A DNA stretch of 15,188 nt from contig JAMCSM010000107.1 in the NCBI GenBank assembly GCA_023380915.1, positions 573 through 15,760 of the forward strand. Direction: 5' to 3'. The DNA comes from Actinomycetota bacterium. GTDB lineage: Bacteria > Actinomycetota > Humimicrobiia > Humimicrobiales > Humimicrobiaceae. Below are positions 3,921 to 15,140 of the stretch, piece after piece. Position 1 is the stretch's first letter; every line of letters begins with the position of its first letter. Made by a program: the position numbers and the translations under genes. The notes beneath the pieces are model-generated. The model made no database searches. It was not told the DNA's origin and worked only from the letters and a program-made list of their open reading frames with translations.

Positions 3921-4868
3921 TTAAAAACTTAAAAACTGTATCTCACCAAAAAAAGCATCATCAATATTAACCTTTCCGGTTCCCTGCAGAGCAATTACAG
4001 GATCGCCCAAGATTACATCATCCGGAGCTTTTGCTATTAAATTATATTTCATCCATCTACCATAACTTGTGCCGATTATCCAGGGCCCATAACAAGCATA
4101 TGAAGGATAGATTCTTTTTCCCTTTTTTTTGTTTTTAAAATCGTCATTTCGAAAAAATTGCTGAATGAGCCTTACGCCGTTTCCATCATTAACACTGTAG
4201 TTTATCCAAAAGGAAAGGAGGTAATATCTTCCAGATATTACTCTTGGTTTAAACTTTATAAAAGGTACAGCCAATGCTCCGTCATCAAGCCTGTCTTTTC
4301 CTATGATTTTAAAACTCCATTTTCCGCTTCTTGATAAAGTATTATCGCACAAAAATTCAGGTTTGCCTGCAAATATTTCATTACCCCAGGGTAAGGGGCG
4401 AAAACCATATTTGTCTGAAAAATAATCTTTTAAATAATAAATTTTTTCAAAGCTTACATTAGCATTGGAAAACTCTGTTGGATGGTTTTCAAGAATTACA
4501 AACGGTGCATTAATTTCTATAGGTTGCAGTAGAATTGGTTGAAGAGTATCAGCAGTGGTTTGGTTAAAATAACTATGATGAATAGGTAACCCCTCAATAT
4601 TATCTTTAAAATTACTGATAGTTTTGGTATTAAGGTTATTCTTTTTAACATTAAGGGTATCAACATTAATATCAATATCATGATTTTTGGTTGAGTAACT
4701 TTCTAGTGCTCGTGCATAATGTACCCCATTAGTTTTTAAATGCAAACCAGGTATAGGTTTATTGGTGTGCACAAAAACAGGTATTAGGCTAAGGCCCAGT
4801 ATAAGGGAAAATCCTGATACTATAAGGATCCTTTTTACTCTGTTCCAATTCTTATATTTAATTTTCAT
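3921..4868 (-). CDS. Membrane-anchored protein with C-terminal carbohydrate-binding-like (jelly-roll) domain
   Basis: 315 residues from the ATG at 4868. An in-frame TTG three codons upstream is possible but has no better ribosome-binding site. A basic start (KIKYKNWNRVKR) precedes one hydrophobic segment (14-33), so the bulk is extracytoplasmic. Residues 40-125 are polar, Asn/Thr-rich and unrecognised. Residues about 165-312 resemble a beta-sandwich carbohydrate-binding module: SRSGKWSFKI, then SGRYYLLSFWIN, and the closing KYNLIAKAP...VNIDDAFFGE, typical of CBM4/9-like or galactose-binding-like folds. No catalytic motif is visible. It sits directly upstream of the family 2 glycosyltransferase (31 nt) and downstream of the broken propeller-like gene (56 nt), so I infer a surface glycan-binding or polymer-export accessory role. 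The fold assignment comes from pattern only. Confidence 0.7.
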   Translation of the reverse strand: MKIKYKNWNRVKRILIVSGFSLILGLSLIPVFVHTNKPIPGLHLKTNGVHYARALESYSTKNHDIDINVDTLNVKKNNLNTKTISNFKDNIEGLPIHHSYFNQTTADTLQPILLQPIEINAPFVILENHPTEFSNANVSFEKIYYLKDYFSDKYGFRPLPWGNEIFAGKPEFLCDNTLSRSGKWSFKIIGKDRLDDGALAVPFIKFKPRVISGRYYLLSFWINYSVNDGNGVRLIQQFFRNDDFKNKKKGKRIYPSYACYGPWIIGTSYGRWMKYNLIAKAPDDVILGDPVIALQGTGKVNIDDAFFGEIQFLSF

Positions 4869-4924
4869 ATATATCAACTACATTTCTTTAACTAATATTT
4901 ACTAATTTTAAAAGTCAAAATTTT

Positions 4925-6017
4925 TCAAATTGGATTATCCCTTGAAATTATATTATCATTTGAATCCCTAAAATAGATTTTAGCCCCGCTTATGCCAATA
5001 AATTTCAAATCTTTGTCTAATGGGATTTTCTTATTGGTGTCATCTGCTAAATTTATTAAATAATTACCGTAAACAAGATAAACTCCTATCTTGTCAGCAT
5101 ATATTTCTTCATAAAGCGGGTCATTCAAGCTTATTATTTTTTCAATCTTTTCATTTTTCAAAACATATGCTGTGCTTTTTTTATCCAGTGATTGAACGTA
5201 TATATTATCGTTCGAATCACAGCCAAGCAATCGTATTTTTTTCTTATTAAAGCCTTCTATGGGTTGAGGATAGCAAAAAAGATTATTGTTGTAATCTTCA
5301 TAATATAGAGTAAAAGTATTGTTTAATAAAACCATATTATTTATTGTATTTTTTAGGTTTATTGTTTTCACTCTTTTCATAATATTAAGGTAATACAAGG
5401 TATTAATTAAGCTGCTGCCATTACTGCCTTCGATGTTAAAAAAAATAAGATTTGTCAAAGATGAATAATCGATATGTTTTATAGTTGTACCTGCGGTTAT
5501 ATTTATTGTTTTTTGTAAGGTTTCTATATTATTTACAATATCATACGATTTTACATTTAAAGAAGCCCCTTTTAAAGTAAAATAAATAATGATATCTCGG
5601 TCATTCATCAGTTTAAAATTGGTAACAGTGCCATTGTCTGAGACCTTATTGATTAAGGAATCAGTGGAAATGTCTTTTATGTTAATCTCATTTCTATAAA
5701 GATATGTGCAGTATTTTCCGTCATAAGAAAATTAAATATAAGAATGATATATTTATTGCATCGTAAGGTACGTTTGTGAGTTTACCCCCTGACATATTTT
5801 TTGTATCTGCGGAATTTACACTTGATGCAGTCGCGTTGCTTGATTCAGTCACACTTTTTATATTTGCAACATCATCTGCATGCATAACAATAGAATTATT
5901 TATAATAAAGATAACTGAAAAAGAAATAATAGCAGCAAAAATTGCATATATTCCTGTTAATAATACTATTTTTTTAAATTGTTTTTGTGATTTAATTATT
6001 TTTCTATCCGTCTTCAT
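4925..6017 (-). pseudogene. Disrupted membrane-anchored propeller-like protein (frameshifted paralogue of 14007-15140)
   Basis: Two frames together match the intact 377-residue protein at 14007-15140 from end to end. Residues 1-92 (6017 down to about 5745) carry the N-terminal membrane anchor and Ser/Thr/Asn-rich linker, ending DAINISF. The frame then runs into a TGA at 5721-5723. The other frame resumes SYDGKYC and continues to the stop at 4925. Alignment with the intact copy shows a 13-nt insertion (TTCTTATATTTAA on the coding strand, 5732-5744), which shifts the frame by one. A separate downstream protein could start at ATG 5608 (227 aa) but has no visible ribosome-binding site and would lack a membrane anchor. 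The rest of the gene has no other stop and keeps normal codon use, so the lesion looks recent, or it could be an assembly error. It starts 19 nt after the NAGPA-type gene. The function of the intact form is unknown. Confidence 0.8.
5732..5744 (-). other. 13-bp insertion causing the frameshift
   Basis: Relative to the second copy (near 14327), the coding strand carries 13 extra bases between ATATCA and TTTTCTTATGAC. The insert contains TTCTTAT, which recurs 15 nt downstream, so an imperfect local duplication or replication slippage is possible. Exact placement may shift by a base or two. Confidence 0.7.
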
Positions 6018-6036
6018 ACAGTAAACCCATATAGCT

Positions 6037-7077
6037 TTATGGCATGACTAAAAAAGCACTTGGTATTGAGCGCTCCCCTGTTATATCACATGGTCTATTG
6101 ATAGTTTTGCCCTGATAATTCAAAGTCGCTGATGAACCGCCGTCAAGATTTGCGGCATTATAAGCTCCATACTTTAGAAAAATATCCTGGACATCCATAT
6201 AATTTGCGCCGTAGCTGTATAACTGACGGCCATCGATTACCAGCAGTAGAATTGTACCGTCTTTTTTTTGCGCTATTGCACTTCGCGGCGCAAGATAAGT
6301 GCCTCCCTTTTTCACAAGTGGCTTTCCATTTAATATAAGTGCCGGTCCAAAAGAAATAGCACATCTTAAATTACTATTATTTATCTGGTCAAGATCCATT
6401 GAGTTACTGATAACAAGGATATTATCATTGCTAAAGCCTATTACGCTGAATGTCTTAAGTCCGTTTTGTATAAATTTGATTTTTCCGTTTTCAATAACAA
6501 TTCCATCAGGTTTTGCACCCGTACCTGTTAAATTGTCATCTAAAAAGCCTCCTGCATTTATACCGCCAATAGCCTTATATATATTCACTATTTCACTAAG
6601 GGGGGCGCCAACCTGCCCAAGTTTGGGTGCCAGTCCGAGGGTAACCTTTGATGGGTCGCTAACCTCCATAAGCTTGCCCTTAAAATTAGTACCGGTTATG
6701 TCAATAATATTTATTCCAGTTATATCTTTAACTTGCATCTCTTTGCTGTTTTGAGATTCCAGGACTTGATTAGTACTATCAGACTGAACAGTATTGTCTT
6801 TTTGTACTTTTATATTACTTAAATTTTCTTTATCATCCCTTACAACTGAATTGGTTTTAGCTAAAATATTGTTTATATCACCTTTGCTCAGAAACCATGT
6901 TGCAAAATATTTATTACTCTTTGTAGCCATTGACATTGCCACAATATCATATTTTAGTTTTACAAAAGGCCCGTGATAAATGAATATAATTGCAAAAAAA
7001 GATAGAAACACAAGCATGCAAATCATGAAATGAAGAAAATAAAAAGTTATGGAATTTGGTTTGGTCTTATGTTTCAA
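6037..7077 (-). CDS. Membrane-anchored phosphodiester glycosidase (NAGPA)-domain protein, copy 1
   Basis: 346 residues from a TTG at 7077, preceded by a GGGAG Shine-Dalgarno at about 7088-7092; the second copy also starts with TTG. One hydrophobic segment (about 10-33) anchors the protein, followed by a polar linker (85-118). Residues about 125-346 form the NAGPA / DUF2233-type domain found in N-acetylglucosamine-1-phosphodiester alpha-N-acetylglucosaminidase and in bacterial exopolysaccharide proteins. Signatures are GGINAGGF (171-178), the SFGPALILNG strand (242-251), APRSAIAQ (263-270), IDGRQ (281-285) and NLDGGSS (310-316). Members cleave sugar-phosphodiester linkages, so it may trim or modify a phosphate-containing envelope glycan. 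It leads the set of genes followed by the broken propeller-like gene (19 nt gap), the carbohydrate-binding-like protein and the glycosyltransferase. By hand count it shares about 266 of 346 residues with copy 2, without gaps. Confidence 0.88.
   Translation of the reverse strand: MKHKTKPNSITFYFLHFMICMLVFLSFFAIIFIYHGPFVKLKYDIVAMSMATKSNKYFATWFLSKGDINNILAKTNSVVRDDKENLSNIKVQKDNTVQSDSTNQVLESQNSKEMQVKDITGINIIDITGTNFKGKLMEVSDPSKVTLGLAPKLGQVGAPLSEIVNIYKAIGGINAGGFLDDNLTGTGAKPDGIVIENGKIKFIQNGLKTFSVIGFSNDNILVISNSMDLDQINNSNLRCAISFGPALILNGKPLVKKGGTYLAPRSAIAQKKDGTILLLVIDGRQLYSYGANYMDVQDIFLKYGAYNAANLDGGSSATLNYQGKTINRPCDITGERSIPSAFLVMP
6680..6808 (-). repeat. 129-bp perfect inverted repeat, copy 1 (partner 13195-13323)
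   Basis: Base-by-base comparison shows complete identity to the reverse complement of 13195-13323, with a mismatch at each border (6809 and 6679). The tract encodes residues 91-132 of the NAGPA-type protein, that is the linker and the start of the domain. Flanking coding sequence is clearly diverged, including at third codon positions. This makes the tract a candidate gene-conversion or recombination site. Confidence 0.9.
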
Positions 7078-7095
7078 AGTTTATATTCTCCCAAC

Positions 7096-7118
7096 GAATT
7101 TTCATTTACTGAAAATTC
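7096..7118. repeat. 8-bp inverted repeat upstream of NAGPA-type copy 1
   Basis: GAATTTTC, a 7-nt spacer, then GAAAATTC forms a perfect dyad. It lies 19 nt upstream of the TTG start, immediately before the Shine-Dalgarno (in the minus-strand sense). It could be an operator or an mRNA hairpin affecting initiation. Chance occurrence in AT-rich DNA is also plausible. No equivalent is seen upstream of copy 2. Confidence 0.35.
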
Positions 7119-7265
7119 AATATATTAGCATATAAAGATGAATTTTTTATGAAGATTCTCCATTAACTTCTCGTACATAATCTTGATTATTTAGCCTATA
7201 ACTTTTTATTTGCAAGCGTGATGAGTCAGAAGCTGCCCTATAAATATTGCAACTTTAAAAATATA

Positions 7266-8096
7266 TTAAATGCCGGGCGTACCACTGGGAGCAGTAAGTG
7301 TAACGGTTGCATTTTTGCTATCATAACCATTTGAAGCTATTGCTCCTAAACTATAAGATTGGCCCATACGGAGATTTACCTGCGCTATAGTAGCCCCCCA
7401 GACTCCGTGACTATCATCTTTACTGAATACAACAGTTGGAGTGGGATCGCCAGTTACAATAGCTCTGACCCTAAAATAATAAATATTACCATTTGGTACA
7501 TAAATTGGCCCTTCTTCTATCTGAAGGTCTATAGTAACAGAATGATCAATTGTGGTTACTGCAGTAGCAGATATTTCACTATTTGAAGTGTATGAAGTAT
7601 TTAAAGTGCCACTTGAATATTGTACAGAAAACTTGACCGTATTTGAGCTTGATATAATATTGTTATTTGCATCAACAAGAGTTGCTGCAATTGAATAATC
7701 TGCTGCGTTGCCTGGATTCCAATCATACACATATGGCGGTGCACTTATAGTCTTTATTATCTGCCCATCACTTAAAATGATATTTAATTTATAACCAGTG
7801 CTTGAAATATCTTCTTTTAAGTCAACCTTGATGGGGACAGTCTCGGTTCCATTTGCAAAAATAAAAGCCTGTCCATTTTCAGGAGATGAAATCAGCATTG
7901 GATATTGCTGGATCTGGGAGGTCTGCTGGGTAGAGTTTTGTGTTTGGCTTGTAGAAGCTTGACCGGAAAAGAATGGAAATGTAAATTTAGCACTAAATCT
8001 TAATACAATTATTACTGCAATAACAATTATTACTGCAAATATTATAAATGGGAATCTATCAGCAAGACTTGTGTATTTTTTATAATTTTTATTCAT
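7266..8096 (-). CDS. Membrane-anchored protein with two Ig-like domains
   Basis: 276 residues with a short basic cytoplasmic tail, one hydrophobic segment (16-32), then a Ser/Thr/Gln-rich linker (46-64) and an extracytoplasmic part. Residues 68-159 look like a bacterial Ig-like domain: SSPENGQAF, then VPIKVDL, then YKLNIILSDGQ, then YVYDWNPGNAADYSIAATLVDANN, closing on VKFSV. This is the pattern of Ig domains in surface proteins and RodZ-like tails. Residues about 185-269 appear to be a second beta-sandwich (YYFRVRAIVTGDPTPTVVFSKD ... ATVTL). No catalytic motif is present. The ATG at 8096 has a good AGAGG Shine-Dalgarno 4 nt upstream. It is the first gene of the minus-strand run, separated by 188 nt from the NAGPA-type gene, so co-transcription is uncertain. 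A structural or adhesion role is inferred only from domain type. Confidence 0.78.
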   Translation of the reverse strand: MNKNYKKYTSLADRFPFIIFAVIIVIAVIIVLRFSAKFTFPFFSGQASTSQTQNSTQQTSQIQQYPMLISSPENGQAFIFANGTETVPIKVDLKEDISSTGYKLNIILSDGQIIKTISAPPYVYDWNPGNAADYSIAATLVDANNNIISSSNTVKFSVQYSSGTLNTSYTSNSEISATAVTTIDHSVTIDLQIEEGPIYVPNGNIYYFRVRAIVTGDPTPTVVFSKDDSHGVWGATIAQVNLRMGQSYSLGAIASNGYDSKNATVTLTAPSGTPGI

Positions 8097-8147
8097 TTTA
8101 CCTCTGTTGTCCTAAGATTTTTAGTTTATAGTAAATCTAATGTAAAT

Positions 8148-8156
8148 ATTCTATCA
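8148..8156 (-). promoter_or_regulatory. Candidate extended -10 promoter for the Ig-like gene
   Basis: On the minus strand TGATAGAAT fits an extended -10 (TGn plus a hexamer matching TATAAT at 5 of 6). It is about 50 nt upstream of the ATG at 8096. No good -35 is present at normal spacing. AT-rich DNA makes chance matches common. Confidence 0.3.
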
Positions 8157-8247
8157 CTTTTTAAGCTAATCAATTAGTTCTTGAGATGATTTATGAAAAT
8201 TTAATTAAAGTATTTTAATTAAAAACTGACATTTATTTAAAATTGAA

Positions 8248-8275
8248 TTTATATTTATCATAAAATCAGTATAAT
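8248..8275 (+). promoter_or_regulatory. Candidate sigma-70-type promoter for the FISUMP lipoprotein and uppP
   Basis: TTTATA (8248-8253), a 16-nt spacer, then a perfect TATAAT (8270-8275). It would give a leader of about 150 nt before the proposed start at 8436. A second TATAAT at 8393-8398 lacks a recognisable -35. Confidence 0.35.
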
Positions 8276-8314
8276 TTATGAGAAACAATTATTTTAAATC
8301 ATTAAAAATAATAT

Positions 8315-8413
8315 TTGAAAGAAAACAAGCTTAATTTTTTGGACATTCCATGGAAAAGACTACAAATGCACAGAGGCGCTGGTAGCAAGGATTATAATAT
8401 AGGGATTTTTTAA
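8315..8413 (+). CDS. Possible 32-residue small ORF or gene remnant
   Basis: A TTG-started frame of 32 codons ending in TAA 22 nt before the proposed ATT start of the FISUMP gene. It contains FLDIPWKRLQMHRGAGSKDY, which has a less Ile/Lys/Asn-dominated composition than random AT-rich frames here, and its DNA (8360-8392) is richer in GC than its surroundings. No Shine-Dalgarno is visible. It could be a leader peptide, the tail of a decayed gene, or chance. Confidence 0.2.
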   Translation: MKENKLNFLDIPWKRLQMHRGAGSKDYNIGIF

Positions 8414-8435
8414 AAATAAAAAAGGAGAATATAAA

Positions 8436-9245
8436 ATTAAGAAAACAATAAAAATTATAATTATTTTAATGATTGCAATTTTTATTTTTGTTTTTACAGG
8501 TTGTTCCGGAGGAGTTGCCCAATTTACGGAAGCTGCAACGACTACTGCCACTTATTCAGCTCAAACTACTCAGGAAGTTCCAACAGAAACAGAGCCGTCT
8601 GTCACGACCACAACCGCTATAACGAGTAATGCAACAACTATGCAGGAAACTGGTACAGTTACAGACATTGACGGTAATGTTTATCATACAATAAAAATTG
8701 GTAATCAGGTATGGATGGTTGAAAGTCTTAAAGTAACCCATTACAGTAATGGTGATCCGATACCCAATGTTACAGATGGCACACAATGGAGTATTATCCC
8801 AACCGGGGCATATTGTAATTATGGTAATGATGCAAATAATGTAACCACTTATGGCTGTCTTTATAACTGGTATGCTGTAAACGACAACCGCAATATTTGT
8901 CCCGCAGGCTGGCATGTACCTACCGATGAAGAGTTTAAGATACTTGAAACATATCTTGGCGGAAACAGCATTGCCGGCGGCAAAATAAAAGAAACAGGAA
9001 CAACTCATTGGATTAGCCCCAACACCGGCGCTAATAATGAAAGTGGCTTTACTGCGCTGCCTGCCGGTTGCCGTTTAAGTGATGGAAATTTTTTAAACAT
9101 AAACAAAGATGTACACTTTTGGACTTCCACGGAACGTAACAGTTCCGGTGCGTGGACCAGGTACTTAAGCGACAATTCAGCAGAAACCTTCCACCACTAT
9201 GGTAACAAGCACTATGGTTTCTGTGTGCGATGCGTGAAGGATTGA
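8436..9245 (+). CDS. FISUMP-domain lipoprotein, probable ATT start
   Basis: Exported lipoprotein carrying a Fibrobacter succinogenes major paralogous (FISUMP, TIGR02145-type) domain. The first ATG (8469) has no Shine-Dalgarno and gives a signal peptide without its basic N-region. An ATT at 8436 lies 8 nt after a clean GGAG (8424-8427) and restores a normal start (KKTIKIIIIL) with a stop upstream at 8400; no ATG, GTG or TTG occurs between. I therefore choose ATT (269 aa). Lipobox-like FTGC follows, Cys23. A Thr-rich linker spans about 30-70. The domain then runs to the end: DIDGNVYHTIKIGNQVWM, YGCLYNWYAV, CPAGWHVPTDEE, GFTALPAGCR, FWTSTE and the final FCVRCVKD. Its role is probably surface binding or adhesion; no activity is established from sequence. 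Parts are far richer in GC than neighbours (32 of 60 bases at 9121-9180), suggesting transfer. uppP follows after 63 nt. Confidence 0.88.
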   Translation: MKKTIKIIIILMIAIFIFVFTGCSGGVAQFTEAATTTATYSAQTTQEVPTETEPSVTTTTAITSNATTMQETGTVTDIDGNVYHTIKIGNQVWMVESLKVTHYSNGDPIPNVTDGTQWSIIPTGAYCNYGNDANNVTTYGCLYNWYAVNDNRNICPAGWHVPTDEEFKILETYLGGNSIAGGKIKETGTTHWISPNTGANNESGFTALPAGCRLSDGNFLNINKDVHFWTSTERNSSGAWTRYLSDNSAETFHHYGNKHYGFCVRCVKD

Positions 9246-9262
9246 ACTGAATATTTCAGTTC
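9244..9262 (+). other. Hairpin overlapping the FISUMP stop codon
   Basis: GAACTGAA, a 3-nt loop TAT, then TTCAGTTC form a perfect 8-bp stem beginning inside the TGA stop codon. No T-run follows, so it is not a standard intrinsic terminator. It may stabilise the upstream mRNA or reduce read-through into uppP. Confidence 0.45.
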
Positions 9263-9308
9263 TGGCTCATATAAAATTAATAATGAAATAAAGTTTTGAA
9301 AGGAAAAA

Positions 9309-10109
9309 TTGATAGGTATAATTCAACCAATAGTTTATGGAGTAGTTCAGGGTATTACAGAGTTTTTACCCATATCAAGTACAGCCCATCTTATATTAAT
9401 CCCATGGTTCTTTGGCTGGAAAGACCCCGGAAATGTTTTTGATGTAGCTCTGCATATCGGGACTGCTGCTGCTGTAATCCTATATTTTGTAAAAGATTGG
9501 ATCAGATTAATTCACGCCGGATTTACCAGGCCTAAATCTGATGATGGAAAACTCTTCTGGTTTTTGGTTATAGCAACTATTCCCGGAGGAATTGCAGGGA
9601 TATTTCTGGATAAATATATGCAATATTTTCGAAATCCTGCTCTTATAGGAATTGTTTTAATAGTTTTAGGAATTGTTTTGTATCTGGCAGATAAAATGGG
9701 ACAGAATAATACTGAATTAAAAAAAATTGGACTTTTCAGAAGTTTGGGTATTGGCATTTCACAAATTCTTGCAATTATTCCCGGCATATCCCGTTCAGGA
9801 ATTACAATAACAACCGGACGATTTTTAGGTGTGAAAAAAGAAAGCATTGTAAAATTTACTTTTTTGCTGTCTGCGCCAATAATACTTGCAGATGGCCTTT
9901 ATCATGCCAAGGATTTAAAAAATGTTCCAATTGACAGAATACCATTTATTATTGCTGTTTTTACATCTGCTATTGTTGGAGCTCTGAGCATTAAATTCCT
10001 GTTGAGCTACATTAGAAAGTGGGGCTTTGGGATATTTGCAGTTTACAGGTTTGTATTTGGAACTTTTGTTATTGTGCTATATTTTATAAGAATACATTTC
10101 TTGAAGTAA
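9309..10109 (+). CDS. uppP: Undecaprenyl-diphosphatase (BacA/UppP family)
   Basis: 266-residue polytopic membrane enzyme of normal family length. It converts undecaprenyl diphosphate to undecaprenyl phosphate on the outer face of the membrane, recycling the carrier used for peptidoglycan and other surface glycans, and commonly confers bacitracin tolerance. The first signature is QGITEFLPISSTAHL (14-28), with Glu18 and His27 at catalytic positions. The second is PGISRSG (158-164), with Arg162 as the conserved active-site Arg. The first Glu of the E. coli EGxxE motif is Gln14 here, as in many family members. The start is TTG at 9309, five nt after AAAGGA. It lies 63 nt after the FISUMP lipoprotein with a small hairpin between, and converges on the CHAP gene. 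Together with the PAP2 protein it gives this region two lipid-carrier phosphatases. Confidence 0.96.
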   Translation: MIGIIQPIVYGVVQGITEFLPISSTAHLILIPWFFGWKDPGNVFDVALHIGTAAAVILYFVKDWIRLIHAGFTRPKSDDGKLFWFLVIATIPGGIAGIFLDKYMQYFRNPALIGIVLIVLGIVLYLADKMGQNNTELKKIGLFRSLGIGISQILAIIPGISRSGITITTGRFLGVKKESIVKFTFLLSAPIILADGLYHAKDLKNVPIDRIPFIIAVFTSAIVGALSIKFLLSYIRKWGFGIFAVYRFVFGTFVIVLYFIRIHFLK

Positions 10110-10128
10110 ATATTAATACACAGAATTT

Positions 10129-10152
10129 ATTAAAAAATTAATTAAAAAATTA
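10129..10152. repeat. Two tandem copies of a 12-bp AT unit
   Basis: ATTAAAAAATTA occurs twice head to tail in the gap between the convergent uppP and CHAP genes. The unit is nearly self-complementary and could form a weak AT-only hairpin. No clear intrinsic terminator is present in this 151-bp gap. Confidence 0.5.
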
Positions 10153-10260
10153 ATTGACAAAATTAAAGAGAATGCAACAAGCCCAACTATTTACAGACTC
10201 ACATAAAAATATTTTCAAAGTTGATACGACGGTACGACATTACTGCAGCTCTAATAATTA

Positions 10261-11088
10261 TTAAATGTATTGGTAATATGGCTTACCATAGTTTAATTTG
10301 CTGTGTATCCATCCTCTTACCGGCGGGTATGTAACATTTTTTTCACTTGAAAAATTCGATATATAGTTGTTATCATCTATTGGAAGGGAGTCTTCGGCAT
10401 TAATTCCTACATTTTGTTGAACAAAATATATTCTTTTATTATTTCTGTCTATCCAAATAACTATGGCTACATGACCATGTGAAAGTCCTTTACCTTCACC
10501 TGCATCAAAAACAAGAATGTCTCCCCATCTTGGAGTCCGGGTATTCCCATTTTCAAAAGTTTCAAAATCTGAAATGCGCTGTACTGCGTTGAACATTTGA
10601 TAAGCACTGCTTACTCCTGGCAATAAACCAAAATTAAATTGAGAATAAAATCTCCTGACCATTTCTACACATTGCCACTTAAGGCCATATGCACTTCGGC
10701 CATTCACGTAGTTCCATGACTCTGTATTATAATAAATATCTACACCACACCATTCTTTTCCAGGTAAAAGTACGTCTCCCCATCTAAATTTGATGTTTGT
10801 CGCAGAACTTTCATTGGTTTCTTTAGTTATTGCTTCTGGCGTTTTATAAATACTTTTTTTATATGTTTCATCTGATTGAGTAATTTCTGCAGTAATTACA
10901 TTTATTGTTGATACTGCAGTTGCAGCAGCTGCTGAAGTCCCACCGGTAATAACTTTAGTCCTTTGATTTTCTTTGTTTATAGATGGATTTACACATAGGG
11001 CCTGGATGCTTGAAAATAAAATAATAATTAAAGTTATAATAATTATATATATCTTTTTATTTTTCTTTTTTCTTTTTGAAATATTCAT
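10261..11088 (-). CDS. Exported CHAP-domain amidase/endopeptidase
   Basis: 275 residues. A strongly basic start (KRKKKNKK) and hydrophobic segment (13-30) form a signal peptide, with a possible cleavage after IQA (28-30), or an anchor. Residues about 45-98 are a low-complexity Ala/Thr/Ser-rich linker. The CHAP (cysteine, histidine-dependent amidohydrolase/peptidase) domain covers about 105-262. The catalytic Cys140 lies in KWQCVEMVRRFY, the catalytic His206 in SHGHVAIV, and a polar third residue probably in YFVQQN (Gln225/Asn226). WGDILVF (188-194) is the usual strand before the His. CHAP enzymes cleave peptidoglycan stem peptides or related amides, including glutathionylspermidine. An envelope role is inferred from export. 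The ATG at 11088 has only a weak GGA upstream. It converges with uppP and diverges from the PIG-L gene. Confidence 0.88.
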   Translation of the reverse strand: MNISKRKKKNKKIYIIIITLIIILFSSIQALCVNPSINKENQRTKVITGGTSAAAATAVSTINVITAEITQSDETYKKSIYKTPEAITKETNESSATNIKFRWGDVLLPGKEWCGVDIYYNTESWNYVNGRSAYGLKWQCVEMVRRFYSQFNFGLLPGVSSAYQMFNAVQRISDFETFENGNTRTPRWGDILVFDAGEGKGLSHGHVAIVIWIDRNNKRIYFVQQNVGINAEDSLPIDDNNYISNFSSEKNVTYPPVRGWIHSKLNYGKPYYQYI

Positions 11089-11220
11089 GAGATATTTCCA
11101 GTACTAAAAACTGATTTTGTATACATCTGCATATATTTTACTACTTTGATTTTAAAGTATATATCTTGTAAAAGCTCAATAGTTTAATAGCGGTAATTAT
11201 CAAGATTTTTAATTGGCATT

Positions 11221-11249
11221 TTTAAGTTATTTGAAGGAAAAGGTATAAT
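11221..11249 (+). promoter_or_regulatory. Weak candidate promoter for the PIG-L gene
   Basis: A perfect TATAAT at 11244-11249 lies 29 nt upstream of the ATG at 11279. TTTAAG at 11221-11226 sits 17 nt before it but matches the -35 consensus at only 3 of 6. The leader would be very short, and no Shine-Dalgarno is visible before the ATG. Confidence 0.3.
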
Positions 11250-11278
11250 AATCTAATAAAGTCATAACTTAACAAAAA

Positions 11279-12817
11279 ATGAAAAAAGAAATAATACAAA
11301 AAAATAAAGAAAATAGAGAAAAGCTAAGAAAAGTTAGGAATTCTATTGCTGCTATAATAATAATTATTTTTTCCTCAACCACTTTTGTTTATTGTCAAAA
11401 AGCAGCACCCGGGTTTTTGGAAAAAAATACTCCAAAAATACAAATTCAAATAAATCATGAAACTTTTCCTGCATTTACAAAGATAACTCACAAAAATGAT
11501 TTGCCGACAACAAAAGAGATTCCAATTGTTAAACAAGGGTCTCAAATATTAACCGGCTATAAAGATGAAATTACTCCTCAAATTGGAAAATTTATATCCG
11601 ATGATAGAATTTTGATTTTGGCACCGCATCCCGATGATGAAGCAATTGGCACAGCAGGAGCTATACAGGAAGCATTAAAAGTTGGTGCTGCCGTTAACAT
11701 GGTATGCCTGACCAATGGAGATTTTGATCAATCTTCAATGAGTAATTTTAAAAAAAAATTTCCTGGTGTCCCAGGCCAGTTTTTACTTTTAGGTGAAAAT
11801 AGAATGAAAGAATCCATTAAAGGTATGGAAATACTGGGCTTAAAAGATAATAATTTGAAATTTTTAGGTTATCCTGATTTTGGGACTCTAAATATTTTTT
11901 TATGGCACTGGGGAACCACGGTACCTTATAAAAGCCTCCTGACCCGTACTTTAAAAGTCCCTTATCCCGAATGTTATTCACCCGGTTCGGAATACAGAGG
12001 AGAAAATATCCTTAACGATTTAACCAGTATTATAAAAGAATTCCAGCCGACCAAAATTTTTGTATCAAGCCCGGTAGATTTGAATAGAGATCATAGGGCG
12101 CTTTATCTTTTCCTCAGGGTGTCATTATGGGATCTCGAAGGAAAAATTAAAGATCCTGAAGTTTTTACTTATCTTATTCACAGCAAAAATTGGCCGGTTC
12201 TGCAAGGTTATCACCCTGAAAAATTGTTAATACCTCCAAACCAATCTTCAACCAGTGAAATTGTCTGGTCAAGCTTAAATTTGACCAGCGATGAAACTAA
12301 AAAGAAATATGAAAGCATAATTTGTTATAAAAGCCAGCTTGGATTTGGCCCTCCGTATTTAGTATCCTTTGTTGGGAAAAACGAGCTTTTTGCAGATTTT
12401 AATAGTATAAATTTAAAAAATAACAGCCAAAATCAAATTATCTGGCAGATTGTCAGCGACGACGAATTATTCTATTCAATAAGTAATGGCTTTTTATCTA
12501 TTAAAATAATACCAAAACAAAAAACAGATAAGAATTTTATTATGTCAATTTATTTATTGGGTTATAGCACTAAAACAGAATTTGCTGAAATGCCTAAAAT
12601 TCATTTAAGGATTAGTTCAGAGGGAATAAAAATTTTCAATAAAAATCAGGAAATTCATACAAGCGAAGTCATGCCTGGTTATGACGGAGATTCTTTAATT
12701 ATAAAAATTCCGCTTACTCTTTTGAAAAATCCAAAATATATATTAAGTGACATTGAAACAAAAACAAAATATTTATCAAATAATGCCTCCGGATGGAGGG
12801 TTTTGAATATTGATTGA
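11279..12817 (+). CDS. Membrane-anchored PIG-L family de-N-acetylase with C-terminal beta-rich domain
   Basis: 512 residues with a highly charged start (1-20), one hydrophobic segment (22-38) and a FVYC that is a poor lipobox, so probably an anchor or cleaved signal. The PIG-L/LmbE domain spans about 108-300. It opens with ILAPHPDDE (113-121), whose His117, Asp119 and Asp120 provide zinc-binding and general-base residues. VNMVCLTNGD (139-148) and RMKESIKGMEILGL (175-188) are typical, and DLNRDHRAL (267-275) supplies the distal zinc His (His272). Family members remove N-acetyl groups from GlcNAc-containing glycans or conjugates, using Zn. About 200 further residues follow; the end (IIKIPLTLL ... 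GWRVLNID) resembles a CBM9/DOMON-like beta-sandwich. The usual family length is about 220-280, so this is an extended extracytoplasmic version. It precedes NAGPA-type copy 2 by 108 nt. The substrate is unknown; a surface polysaccharide is inferred. Confidence 0.88.
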   Translation: MKKEIIQKNKENREKLRKVRNSIAAIIIIIFSSTTFVYCQKAAPGFLEKNTPKIQIQINHETFPAFTKITHKNDLPTTKEIPIVKQGSQILTGYKDEITPQIGKFISDDRILILAPHPDDEAIGTAGAIQEALKVGAAVNMVCLTNGDFDQSSMSNFKKKFPGVPGQFLLLGENRMKESIKGMEILGLKDNNLKFLGYPDFGTLNIFLWHWGTTVPYKSLLTRTLKVPYPECYSPGSEYRGENILNDLTSIIKEFQPTKIFVSSPVDLNRDHRALYLFLRVSLWDLEGKIKDPEVFTYLIHSKNWPVLQGYHPEKLLIPPNQSSTSEIVWSSLNLTSDETKKKYESIICYKSQLGFGPPYLVSFVGKNELFADFNSINLKNNSQNQIIWQIVSDDELFYSISNGFLSIKIIPKQKTDKNFIMSIYLLGYSTKTEFAEMPKIHLRISSEGIKIFNKNQEIHTSEVMPGYDGDSLIIKIPLTLLKNPKYILSDIETKTKYLSNNASGWRVLNID

Positions 12818-12925
12818 CGATATTTATGGAAATTTCATATTATTTTCATTTTATTAAATTATTATTAATATTTTATTAATAGACAGCTCATTTAAACTTT
12901 AAATATTTTAGAGGTTATATAAATT

Positions 12926-13966
12926 TTGAAATCTAAATCCAGATTAGTTTCTATAATTTTTTATTTAGTGCATTTTTTAATTTGTGTACTGGTATTTTTA
13001 ACATTTTCTTCAGTGCTGCTTATTTACCATGGTCCTTTCATAAAACTAAAAGAATATATTGTTTCAACTTCGATGCGCACAAATAAAGATAAATTTTTTG
13101 CAACATGGTTTTTATCCAAAAAAGAAATAGATGACATTCTGGCCAAAACAAATCCGGTTGTACAAGATGAGAAAGAAAATTTAAGCAGTATAATAGTACA
13201 AAAAGACAATACTGTTCAGTCTGATAGTACTAATCAAGTCCTGGAATCTCAAAACAGCAAAGAGATGCAAGTTAAAGATATAACTGGAATAAATATTATT
13301 GACATAACCGGTACTAATTTTAAAGGCAAACTTATGATAGTTGACGACCCTTCAATAATTACAATAGGCCTTGCTCCAAAACTTGGAGAGGTCGGTGCTA
13401 CTCTTAATGAAATAGTAAAATCATGCGGAGCTATTGGAGGCATAAATGCGGGAGGATTCTTAGATGACAATCTCCTGGGCACCGGAGGTAAACCTGATGG
13501 AATAATTATACAAGACGATAAAATTAAATTTATTCAAAAAGGGCTTAAAATATTCAGAATAATAGGGTTTAATAAAGACAACATTCTTGTCATAAGCAAT
13601 TCAATGAATCTGGACCAGATAAATGCAAGCAACCTTAGGTGTGCAATTTCTTTTGGACCGGCGCTTATACTAAATGGAAAACCACTTGTAACCAAGGGAG
13701 GAACAACACTTGCACCACGTAGCGCAATAGCGCAGAGAAAAGATGGTACAATTCTTCTTTTGACAATTGACGGTCGCCAGTCGGAAAGTCCTGGTGCTAA
13801 TTTTATGGACTTGCAGAATGTCCTGCTTAAGTATGGAGCTTATAATGCTGCAAATCTTGACGGTGGTTCTTCAACCACTATGAATTATCAGGGAAAAACT
13901 ATCAATAAACCCTGCGATATAACAGGAGAGCGCTCAATTGCATCTGCTTTTATAATCATTCCATAA
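12926..13966 (+). CDS. Membrane-anchored phosphodiester glycosidase (NAGPA)-domain protein, copy 2
   Basis: 346 residues, aligning without gaps to the protein at 6037-7077 (about 80 differences by hand count). The TTG start at 12926 follows GAGG at 12911-12914; the next in-frame ATG is well inside the protein, after the membrane segment. The hydrophobic anchor (about 9-33) is followed by a polar linker and the NAGPA / DUF2233-type domain. Landmarks are GGINAGGF, SFGPALILNG, APRSAIAQ, IDGRQ, NLDGGSS and CDITGERS. These catalytic-domain blocks are the same as in copy 1, so both copies look functional. Differences concentrate in the membrane segment and in surface-type positions, except for residues 91-132, where even the DNA is identical. 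It is followed after 40 nt by the intact propeller-like gene, the same order as in the minus-strand copy. Upstream DNA is unrelated to that of copy 1, so the two are probably controlled separately. Confidence 0.88.
   Translation: MKSKSRLVSIIFYLVHFLICVLVFLTFSSVLLIYHGPFIKLKEYIVSTSMRTNKDKFFATWFLSKKEIDDILAKTNPVVQDEKENLSSIIVQKDNTVQSDSTNQVLESQNSKEMQVKDITGINIIDITGTNFKGKLMIVDDPSIITIGLAPKLGEVGATLNEIVKSCGAIGGINAGGFLDDNLLGTGGKPDGIIIQDDKIKFIQKGLKIFRIIGFNKDNILVISNSMNLDQINASNLRCAISFGPALILNGKPLVTKGGTTLAPRSAIAQRKDGTILLLTIDGRQSESPGANFMDLQNVLLKYGAYNAANLDGGSSTTMNYQGKTINKPCDITGERSIASAFIIIP
13195..13323 (+). repeat. 129-bp perfect inverted repeat, copy 2 (partner 6680-6808)
   Basis: Identical over its whole length to the reverse complement of 6680-6808. 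Mismatches at 13194 and 13324 end the tract. It is in the same codon register in both NAGPA-type genes, so crossing over here would leave both reading frames intact. Confidence 0.9.
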
Positions 13967-14006: not shown

Positions 14007-15140
14007 ATGAAAGCAATTAAAAAAAATAAAAAATTTATAAAAATACTGATATTAACAGGAATATATGCAATTTTATCCGTTGTTATTTCGACTTTAGTTA
14101 TCTATCATATTAATAACTCAATAATCACAAATACAGATGATTCACCAATAAATAACTCTGGTACTACCCAGACAGAAATTGTTTCAAATGAAAAAAGCAC
14201 CATTGAATCAAACAACACACCCATAACAATTGATAATTCTGCAACAACAGAATCCGCGGATACAAATAATACCCTTAAAATTAAACTTACAAATATACCA
14301 TGGAATGCAATAAATATATCATTTTCATATGACGGAAAATACTGTGCCTATCTTTGTGACAATAAAATTTATATAAAAGATATTGCTTCCAACACAACAA
14401 TCAAAGAAATTATTGATGATGCCCCTGTAACCAATTTTATCCTTATAAATGACCGTGACCAGATTATTTATTTTACCTTAAGGGGAACAACTTTGAATGT
14501 AAAAACATATGATATTTCTAGTAATACGGAAACCCTGCAAAAGACAATAAAAATACCTGAAGACGCAACAATTAAACATATTGATTATTCAGCTTTAACA
14601 AATCTTGTATTTCTTAATGTTGAGAACGGTAGCGGCAGTAGTTTAAAAAGTGCTCTATACTATCTTAATATAATGAAAAGATTAAAAACAGTTCAATTAA
14701 AAACTATAATAAATAATATGGTTTTGTTAAACAACGCCTTTACCTTGTATTATGAAGATTATGATAATATTCTTTACTGCTATCCCCAACCAATAAAATC
14801 AATAGAAGGACTTGATTTTAAAAAAACACGCTTACTGGGTTGTGATTCTACCGATAATGTATTTATTCAATCCTTAAACAACAGACACAATATTTATATT
14901 TTAAAAAATGGAAGTATTGATAATATAATAAATTTAAATGATCTTGCCTACAATGAATTTTATGCTGATAAAATTGGAGTTTATGTTATTTACAGCAATT
15001 ATATAATTAATTTAGCTGGCGATATTAATAAAAAAATGCTATTGGATAGAAATTTATTATTCGTTGGTGCAGGTGGAGATAAAATGTATTTTAGAGATTC
15101 TGATGGCAATATAATTGCTAAAATTATAAAATTTGAATGA
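14007..15140 (+). CDS. Membrane-anchored extracytoplasmic protein with propeller-like repeats (intact copy)
   Basis: 377 residues; no named family recognised. A basic start (KAIKKNKKFIK) and a hydrophobic segment (12-35) anchor it. Residues about 38-92 are a Ser/Thr/Asn-rich linker. The remainder, from WNAINISFSYDGKYCAYL, consists of short beta-strand blocks that look like PD40/TolB-type propeller blades: FSYDGKYCAYLCDNKIYIKDI, then NDRDQIIYFTLRGTTLNVKTYDI, SALTNLVFLNVENGSG, FTLYYEDYDNILYC, DKIGVYVIYSNYIINL and DKMYFRDSDGNIIAKI. There is no catalytic motif. It follows NAGPA-type copy 2 by 40 nt with no Shine-Dalgarno, so translation may be coupled. Its counterpart in the minus-strand cluster is frameshifted, leaving this as the only intact version in the window. 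Constant pairing with the NAGPA-type gene suggests a partner or scaffold role, which is inference. Confidence 0.75.
   Translation: MKAIKKNKKFIKILILTGIYAILSVVISTLVIYHINNSIITNTDDSPINNSGTTQTEIVSNEKSTIESNNTPITIDNSATTESADTNNTLKIKLTNIPWNAINISFSYDGKYCAYLCDNKIYIKDIASNTTIKEIIDDAPVTNFILINDRDQIIYFTLRGTTLNVKTYDISSNTETLQKTIKIPEDATIKHIDYSALTNLVFLNVENGSGSSLKSALYYLNIMKRLKTVQLKTIINNMVLLNNAFTLYYEDYDNILYCYPQPIKSIEGLDFKKTRLLGCDSTDNVFIQSLNNRHNIYILKNGSIDNIINLNDLAYNEFYADKIGVYVIYSNYIINLAGDINKKMLLDRNLLFVGAGGDKMYFRDSDGNIIAKIIKFE

What the first reader, a model, noticed from the sequence alone, without database searches (positions are those of the whole stretch)
6680..13323. 129-bp identical inverted repeats bound a potentially invertible 6.4-kb envelope segment
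The inverted tracts 6680-6808 and 13195-13323 are perfectly identical and occupy the same codons of two oppositely oriented NAGPA-type genes. Homologous recombination between them would invert 6809-13194, which contains the Ig-like, FISUMP, uppP, CHAP and PIG-L genes. It would exchange promoters, Shine-Dalgarnos and N-terminal anchors (first 90 residues) between the two genes and leave both frames open. This would change which upstream signals drive the glycosyltransferase operon and which drive the second cluster, a form of phase variation without a dedicated recombinase. No recombinase gene is visible, so RecA-dependent exchange is assumed.
Basis: partly seen in the sequence, partly recalled or inferred. 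Interest (0 to 1): 0.75.

Follow-up and report, generated by a model that had tools for sequence, protein, structure and literature searches.

The report
Gene conversion between inverted twin genes
Two diverged, oppositely oriented copies of a predicted envelope-enzyme gene share one perfectly identical 129-base stretch, which was most likely copied recently from the left gene into the right one without flipping the DNA between them, an ordinary kind of gene-to-gene copying rather than a demonstrated genetic switch.

Summary
In detail: 6680-6808 and 13195-13323 are exact reverse complements (129 bp), in the same codons of two inverted NAGPA-family genes that are 72-76% identical on either side. 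0 of 20,000 site shuffles and 0 of 20,000 codon shuffles reach such a run. The switch interpretation is mostly not supported. A related actinobacterial MAG carries an ortholog of the left gene, and database protein P0002 is a near ortholog of the right gene. With these as flanking markers, the left gene is left-type throughout; the right gene is right-type before and after the tract but left-type inside it. So the tract was most likely written left to right by gene conversion. Both genes keep parental ends, the signature of conversion without crossover, that is, without inversion in the sequenced molecule. The same 4 of 20 clade rows are right-type in both end trees, so no 5'/3' chimera is seen. 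The tract covers mainly a variable, predicted disordered linker. A crossover there would keep both frames open, so rare inversion stays possible, but nothing shows it. This is a new instance of a known process. Interest is low to moderate.

The parts
6680..6808 (-). 129-bp tract in the left NAGPA gene, inferred donor
   Evidence: exact reverse complement of 13195-13323; 91.5% to the ortholog in L003
13195..13323 (+). 129-bp tract in the right NAGPA gene, inferred recipient
   Evidence: L-type inside an R-type gene: sites L=R against L003 versus L=L003 against R are 11:0 in the tract, 6:44 and 29:98 in the flanks; the R near ortholog P0002 has a different linker
6037..7077 (-). left NAGPA-family (PF09992) gene with predicted N-terminal membrane helix, L type throughout
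   Evidence: Pfam 3.7e-41; N- and C-part trees
12926..13966 (+). right NAGPA-family gene, R type outside the tract
   Evidence: precomputed PF09992; 91% to P0002 in the N part and 91% in the C part
4925..6017 (-). left copy of the partner gene (propeller-like is my label; Pfam hits only below cut-off), read as separate 98-aa and 227-aa frames, with a 13-bp insertion against L003 and the right copy
14007..15140 (+). right copy of the partner gene, open over 377 aa
   Evidence: 770 of 1067 aligned bases identical to the left copy, longest identical run 25
   Evidence: no Pfam hit at E 0.001; 65% relative in G001 on another contig
8469..9245 (+). FISUMP-domain gene
   Evidence: PF09603 6.9e-50
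9309..10109 (+). undecaprenyl-diphosphatase (uppP/bacA) gene
   Evidence: PF02673 5.2e-75
10261..11088 (-). CHAP-domain gene
   Evidence: PF05257 7.4e-12
11279..12817 (+). PIG-L deacetylase-like gene, upstream of the right NAGPA gene
   Evidence: PF02585 1.3e-21

Best explanation
The two NAGPA-family genes are inverted paralogs that differ at about a quarter of their bases outside one 129-bp stretch, and that identical stretch was most likely copied from the left gene into the right gene by a recent gene conversion that did not invert the DNA between them. Shown here: exact identity only in the tract, every synonymous position included; discordance with the relatives confined to the tract; parental flanks on both genes. 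Inferred: a break or gap within the right gene's linker was repaired by homologous (presumably RecA-type) strand invasion of the left gene in the same cell, copying its linker; the joint was resolved without crossover. Most of the copied part is a predicted disordered linker, so the change was probably near neutral. The right copy's earlier linker was probably longer and R-type, as in P0002.
For: Tract-confined identity: L/R 71.7 / 100 / 76.2%. Codons with the same amino acid but a different codon: 19 of 55 before, 0 of 42 in, 74 of 169 after the tract. Sites with L=L003 against R versus L=R against L003: 44:6 before, 0:11 in, 98:29 after. Trees of residues 1-89 and 136-346 both group winR with P0002 (91% and 91%) in a 4-row R group (SH-aLRT 97 and 92) and keep winL outside it. 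In the linker winR equals winL (43 of 43) and is 91% to P0003-P0005 and P0007-P0009, whereas the best linker match of P0002 is P0010 at 49%, of P0010 is P0002 at 49%, and of P0013 is P0014 at 40%. The R group is the same 4 of 20 rows in both trees. The sequence upstream of the left gene is also L-type: the alignment with L003 runs on to 7154. Linker residues 93-118 have pLDDT under 50. Precedent: inverted tufA/tufB conversion in Salmonella (PMC5485169, passages).
Against: No reads, so neither the tract nor the orientation can be checked for assembly error. No DNA is held for P0002, so the R side rests on protein, and the sequence upstream of the right gene could not be typed. The 3' flank has 29 L=R sites against L003 and the flanks have 22 and 35 sites where R=L003 against L: homoplasy, changes of L alone, or older small conversions. 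Polarised with L002 as outgroup the 5' flank is weak (L-L003 6, L-R 3, R-L003 5), the 3' flank clearer (29, 11, 9), and only 4 of the tract's 11 L=R sites can be assigned to the L side. The N-part tree has few columns, 22 of 43 inner branches open, and does not resolve the L types as one clade; the trees are quick ones and no AU test was run. An even number of crossovers would leave the same flanks. In tuf almost half of the conversions selected at one site came with inversion, so crossover is not mechanistically disfavoured.
Confidence: 0.86

Rival explanations
1. The tract is a live inversion site: RecA-dependent crossover between the 129-bp inverted repeats flips 6809-13194 in part of the population, swapping upstream regions and anchors of the two genes. 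It is compatible with an earlier conversion.
For: Identical inverted tract, in phase; chimeric frames would stay open. Inversions accompany almost half of the conversions selected at one site between inverted tuf genes.
Against: Both genes have parental ends in the sequenced molecule and no chimera is seen among 20 clade rows; no recombinase among 14 scanned ORFs; the order difference from L003 has breakpoints outside the tract.
Confidence: 0.12
2. Assembly artefact: reads of two paralogs, or two strains, were merged so that the left gene's linker was pasted into the right gene.
For: The window's proteins are listed on a 15,760-bp contig, probably metagenomic (no whole genome held); a repeat of 129 bp is near common k-mer sizes (recalled).
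Against: A paste needs two false joins, both in frame. The flanks are non-chimeric and each gene keeps its own type on both sides, which a wrong traversal of the repeat would not give.
Confidence: 0.06
3. Selection on the linker kept the DNA identical since the duplication.
For: None found beyond the identity itself.
Against: 0 of 42 codons differ synonymously, against 19 of 55 and 74 of 169 in the flanks; by eye the linker is the least conserved part of the alignment, and R-type relatives P0002, P0010 and P0013 have other linkers; at all 11 tract sites where L differs from L003, R has the L base.
Confidence: 0.01

Closest known systems
Gene conversion between the inverted tufA and tufB genes of Salmonella enterica (PMC5485169; passages read)
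   Same: Two inverted paralogs on one chromosome; one-way copying from donor to recipient with the donor unchanged; possible accompanying inversion.
   Different: tuf genes are nearly identical; here the genes differ at about 25% of sites outside one short tract. Here no inversion is seen and RecA dependence is untested.
RecA-dependent pilE/pilS and related conversions in antigenic variation (PMC4534519; passages)
   Same: Segmental one-way copying within a surface-associated gene.
   Different: No silent cassette array is seen here: both genes are open from start to stop, and one event is seen.
Campylobacter fetus sap S-layer locus with RecA-dependent inversion between inverted homologs (mechanism recalled; passages of PMC3887049 speak only of phase variation and rearranged sap genes)
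   Different: There inversion is established (recalled); here no second orientation or chimeric gene is seen.

Membership tests
Ectopic (paralog-to-paralog) gene conversion | Tract of identity well above both flanks, synonymous sites included | tested here: met
Ectopic (paralog-to-paralog) gene conversion | Phylogenetic discordance confined to the tract, with donor and recipient distinguishable | tested here: met
   donor side at DNA level (L003), recipient side at protein level (P0002)
Ectopic (paralog-to-paralog) gene conversion | Flanking markers parental (non-crossover outcome) | tested here: met
   N- and C-part trees
Ectopic (paralog-to-paralog) gene conversion | Dependence on RecA-type recombination | not testable with these tools
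   no experiment; no genome held for the window
Invertible element / phase-variation switch | Inverted repeats bounding the segment | tested here: met
Invertible element / phase-variation switch | Both orientations present in reads or relatives | tested here: inconclusive
   no reads; no chimera among 20 clade rows; only one relative with comparable order, and its breakpoints are elsewhere
Invertible element / phase-variation switch | Dedicated site-specific recombinase nearby | tested here: not met
   none among 14 ORFs scanned with Pfam; only 15.2 kb visible
Invertible element / phase-variation switch | Expression changes with orientation | not testable with these tools
   none

The most novel reading that the evidence does not exclude
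The conversion created, mostly in a predicted disordered linker, an in-phase 129-bp inverted repeat that now lets this bacterium flip a 6.4-kb envelope-gene segment by homologous recombination alone, exchanging anchors and upstream control regions between two phosphodiester-glycosidase gene clusters.
Probability: 0.1. Interest if true: 0.55.

Novelty: new member of a known kind. Interest (0 to 1): 0.25.

Why it matters
It shows that a perfect inverted repeat in phase in two genes should not be read as a switch before flanking markers are checked. The parental or chimeric state of the two genes tells conversion from inversion without reads, given relatives of both copies. It also gives one clean natural example of short, one-way conversion between strongly diverged inverted paralogs in an uncultured lineage.

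Tried and rejected
Scans with the two-row alignment A1 found no relative in the genome or viral collections, probably because the patterns came from variable parts; alignment A2 found 75 loci. Of these 75 only L002 and L003 were compared for gene content and order; L001 (Clostridium algifaecis, 63%) and the rest were not. Looked for the R-type gene in genomes: G001 has one match, the L type (its completeness is not told). Of 149 genomes given as relatives of G001, G001 and G002 included, 27 match, but only G001 and G002 over nearly the whole protein; the other 25 match only C-terminal parts at 31-46%. So R-type DNA with context was not obtained. Looked for an exact inverted repeat of 12 or more between 4601-5000 and 7078-8468, near the ends of the block that is flipped against L003: none. 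Searched G001/G002 for the GT2, uppP, Ig-like and hypothetical 3921-4877 proteins: GT2 has partial matches at 27-40%; a 65% Ig-like relative (G001), UppP relatives at 74-76% (G002) and 42% (G001) lie on contigs other than the NAGPA ones; nothing was found for the hypothetical protein. Considered and rejected: chance, selection on the linker, crossover in the sequenced molecule. A first Campylobacter fetus literature search gave 0 papers, a broader one 8.

Full report
Observation. The window holds two 346-aa NAGPA-family genes in opposite orientation (6037-7077 minus, 'L'; 12926-13966 plus, 'R'), 77% identical in protein. They belong to an inverted homology of 1051 nt at 78%. Within it 129 consecutive bases, 6680-6808 and 13195-13323, are identical. 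The next longest inverted exact match in the window is 25 bp. In 20,000 site shuffles the longest run was 59, and in 20,000 codon shuffles 68. The gene after each NAGPA gene is duplicated too (4925-6017 and 14007-15140; 770 of 1067 aligned bases identical, longest identical run 25), so the repeat unit is a two-gene unit, and the tract is the only long identical stretch in it.

Where the tract lies. Its complete codons are residues 91-132, between an N-terminal helical region with a predicted membrane helix and the Pfam NAGPA match (168-345 in the L copy). In the predicted model of the R protein (mean pLDDT 71.8; the five models range from 50.2 to 71.8), residues 93-118 have pLDDT under 50; the rest of the tract, from about 120, runs into the first strand of the folded part (122-128). 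Four other stretches after the tract and one before it are also under 50, so the model is moderate only. In an alignment of the two window proteins with 24 of the 118 other hits listed (3161 found), this linker is by eye the least conserved part and varies in length. Purifying selection is therefore a poor explanation. At DNA level, among codons coding the same amino acid, 0 of 42 differ in the tract, against 19 of 55 before and 74 of 169 after it.

Which gene gave and which received. L003, from a MAG titled Actinobacteria bacterium, isolate LacPavin (JAPLCN010000124.1), has one such gene, and its genome gave no second match. It behaves as an ortholog of L: 86.6 / 91.5 / 87.0% to L before, in and after the tract, against 78.0 / 91.5 / 77.2% to R. 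Among L, R and L003, sites where L=L003 against R number 44 before, 0 in and 98 after the tract; sites where L=R against L003 number 6, 11 and 29; sites where R=L003 against L number 22, 0 and 35. At all 11 tract sites where L differs from L003, R has the L base. With L002 as outgroup the polarised counts (L with L003, L with R, R with L003) are 6, 3, 5 before; 0, 4, 0 in; 29, 11, 9 after the tract, so the 5' flank alone is weak at DNA level. For the R gene the near ortholog is the protein P0002: 91% in residues 1-89 and 91% in residues 136-346. It is 18 residues longer and its linker is different; P0010 and P0013, the other two R-type rows, also have other linkers. The R gene of the window thus carries an L-type linker between R-type ends. 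The inferred direction is L to R.

Age. With 0 differences in 129, a rough upper 95% bound on L-R distance in the tract is 0.024, against 0.091 between L and L003 in the same bases. On a simple clock the copy is younger than about a quarter of the L-L003 divergence.

Crossover or not. If crossover in the tract had inverted 6809-13194, each gene would now join one type's 5' part to the other type's 3' part. Quick trees of residues 1-89 and of residues 136-346 (47 rows: the two window proteins and 45 of the 118 other listed hits; P0040 left out as short, lower-ranked rows not given) both put R with P0002, P0010 and P0013, and L outside that group. The joint clade is the same 20 rows in both trees, and the R group the same 4, so no chimera is seen among 20. 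Support for the R group is SH-aLRT 97 in the N part and 92, under the 95 mark, in the C part; the L-type rows form a supported set in the C part (96, 16 rows) but are unresolved in the N part. No AU test was run. The left gene's upstream sequence is L-type too: the alignment with L003 continues to 7154. The right gene's upstream sequence had no relative to compare. The sequenced molecule is thus in the parental arrangement. Non-crossover conversion is the simplest account; an even number of crossovers cannot be excluded. It is not known whether the organisms that supplied the 20 rows hold both copies, so their lack of chimeras is weak evidence.

Gene order in relatives. In L003 the order is NAGPA(+), partner(+), FISUMP(+), CHAP(-), PIG-L(+). 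In the window the L unit lies on the same side of FISUMP but points the other way. The alignment breakpoints are near 4934 and 7154, with FISUMP homology resuming at 8388. They are not in the tract, and reversing 6809-13194 would not give the L003 order. This is a separate rearrangement; its cause was not found. L002, the second contig compared (9,250 bp), has a similar two-gene unit but no match at E 1e-4 to the genes between.

What remains possible. The repeat is long enough in principle for homologous recombination (recalled), and crossover in it keeps both frames open. In Salmonella, conversion between inverted tuf genes came with inversion in almost half of the events selected at one site (PMC5485169, passages). 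So inversion in part of the population is plausible, but nothing in hand shows it.

Literature seen. PMC5485169: passages. PMC4534519: passages. PMC3887049: passages, which do not describe sap inversion; that mechanism is recalled. Listings only. No claim is made that this locus is absent from print.

Noticed in passing
5727-5745 and 4848-4866: The left partner gene carries a 13-bp insertion (5733-5745) absent from L003 and from the right copy, and its frame is broken there. The insertion plus 6 adjoining bases matches 4848-4866 exactly in inverted orientation (19 bp); 0 of 300 Markov surrogates reached 19 (maximum 17), a test made after seeing the match. It may be a templated insertion from about 860 bp away.
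   Followed up: partly
4934-7154 against L003 5848-8043: The two-gene L unit is inverted relative to the FISUMP-CHAP-PIG-L block between the window and the Lac Pavin MAG; no exact inverted repeat of 12 or more joins the regions checked near its ends.
   Followed up: partly
12926-13966 and 6037-7077: Close NAGPA relatives are rare in the genomes given as relatives of G001 (2 of 149 over nearly the whole protein, G001 itself included; kinship not told), whereas Clostridium algifaecis has one at 63%, which may mean horizontal transfer.
   Followed up: no
3921-4877: 318-aa protein without Pfam or NCBIfam hit at E 0.001 and without a match in G001 or G002, beside a GT2 glycosyltransferase, a GH113-like protein and a PAP2 phosphatase.
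   Followed up: no
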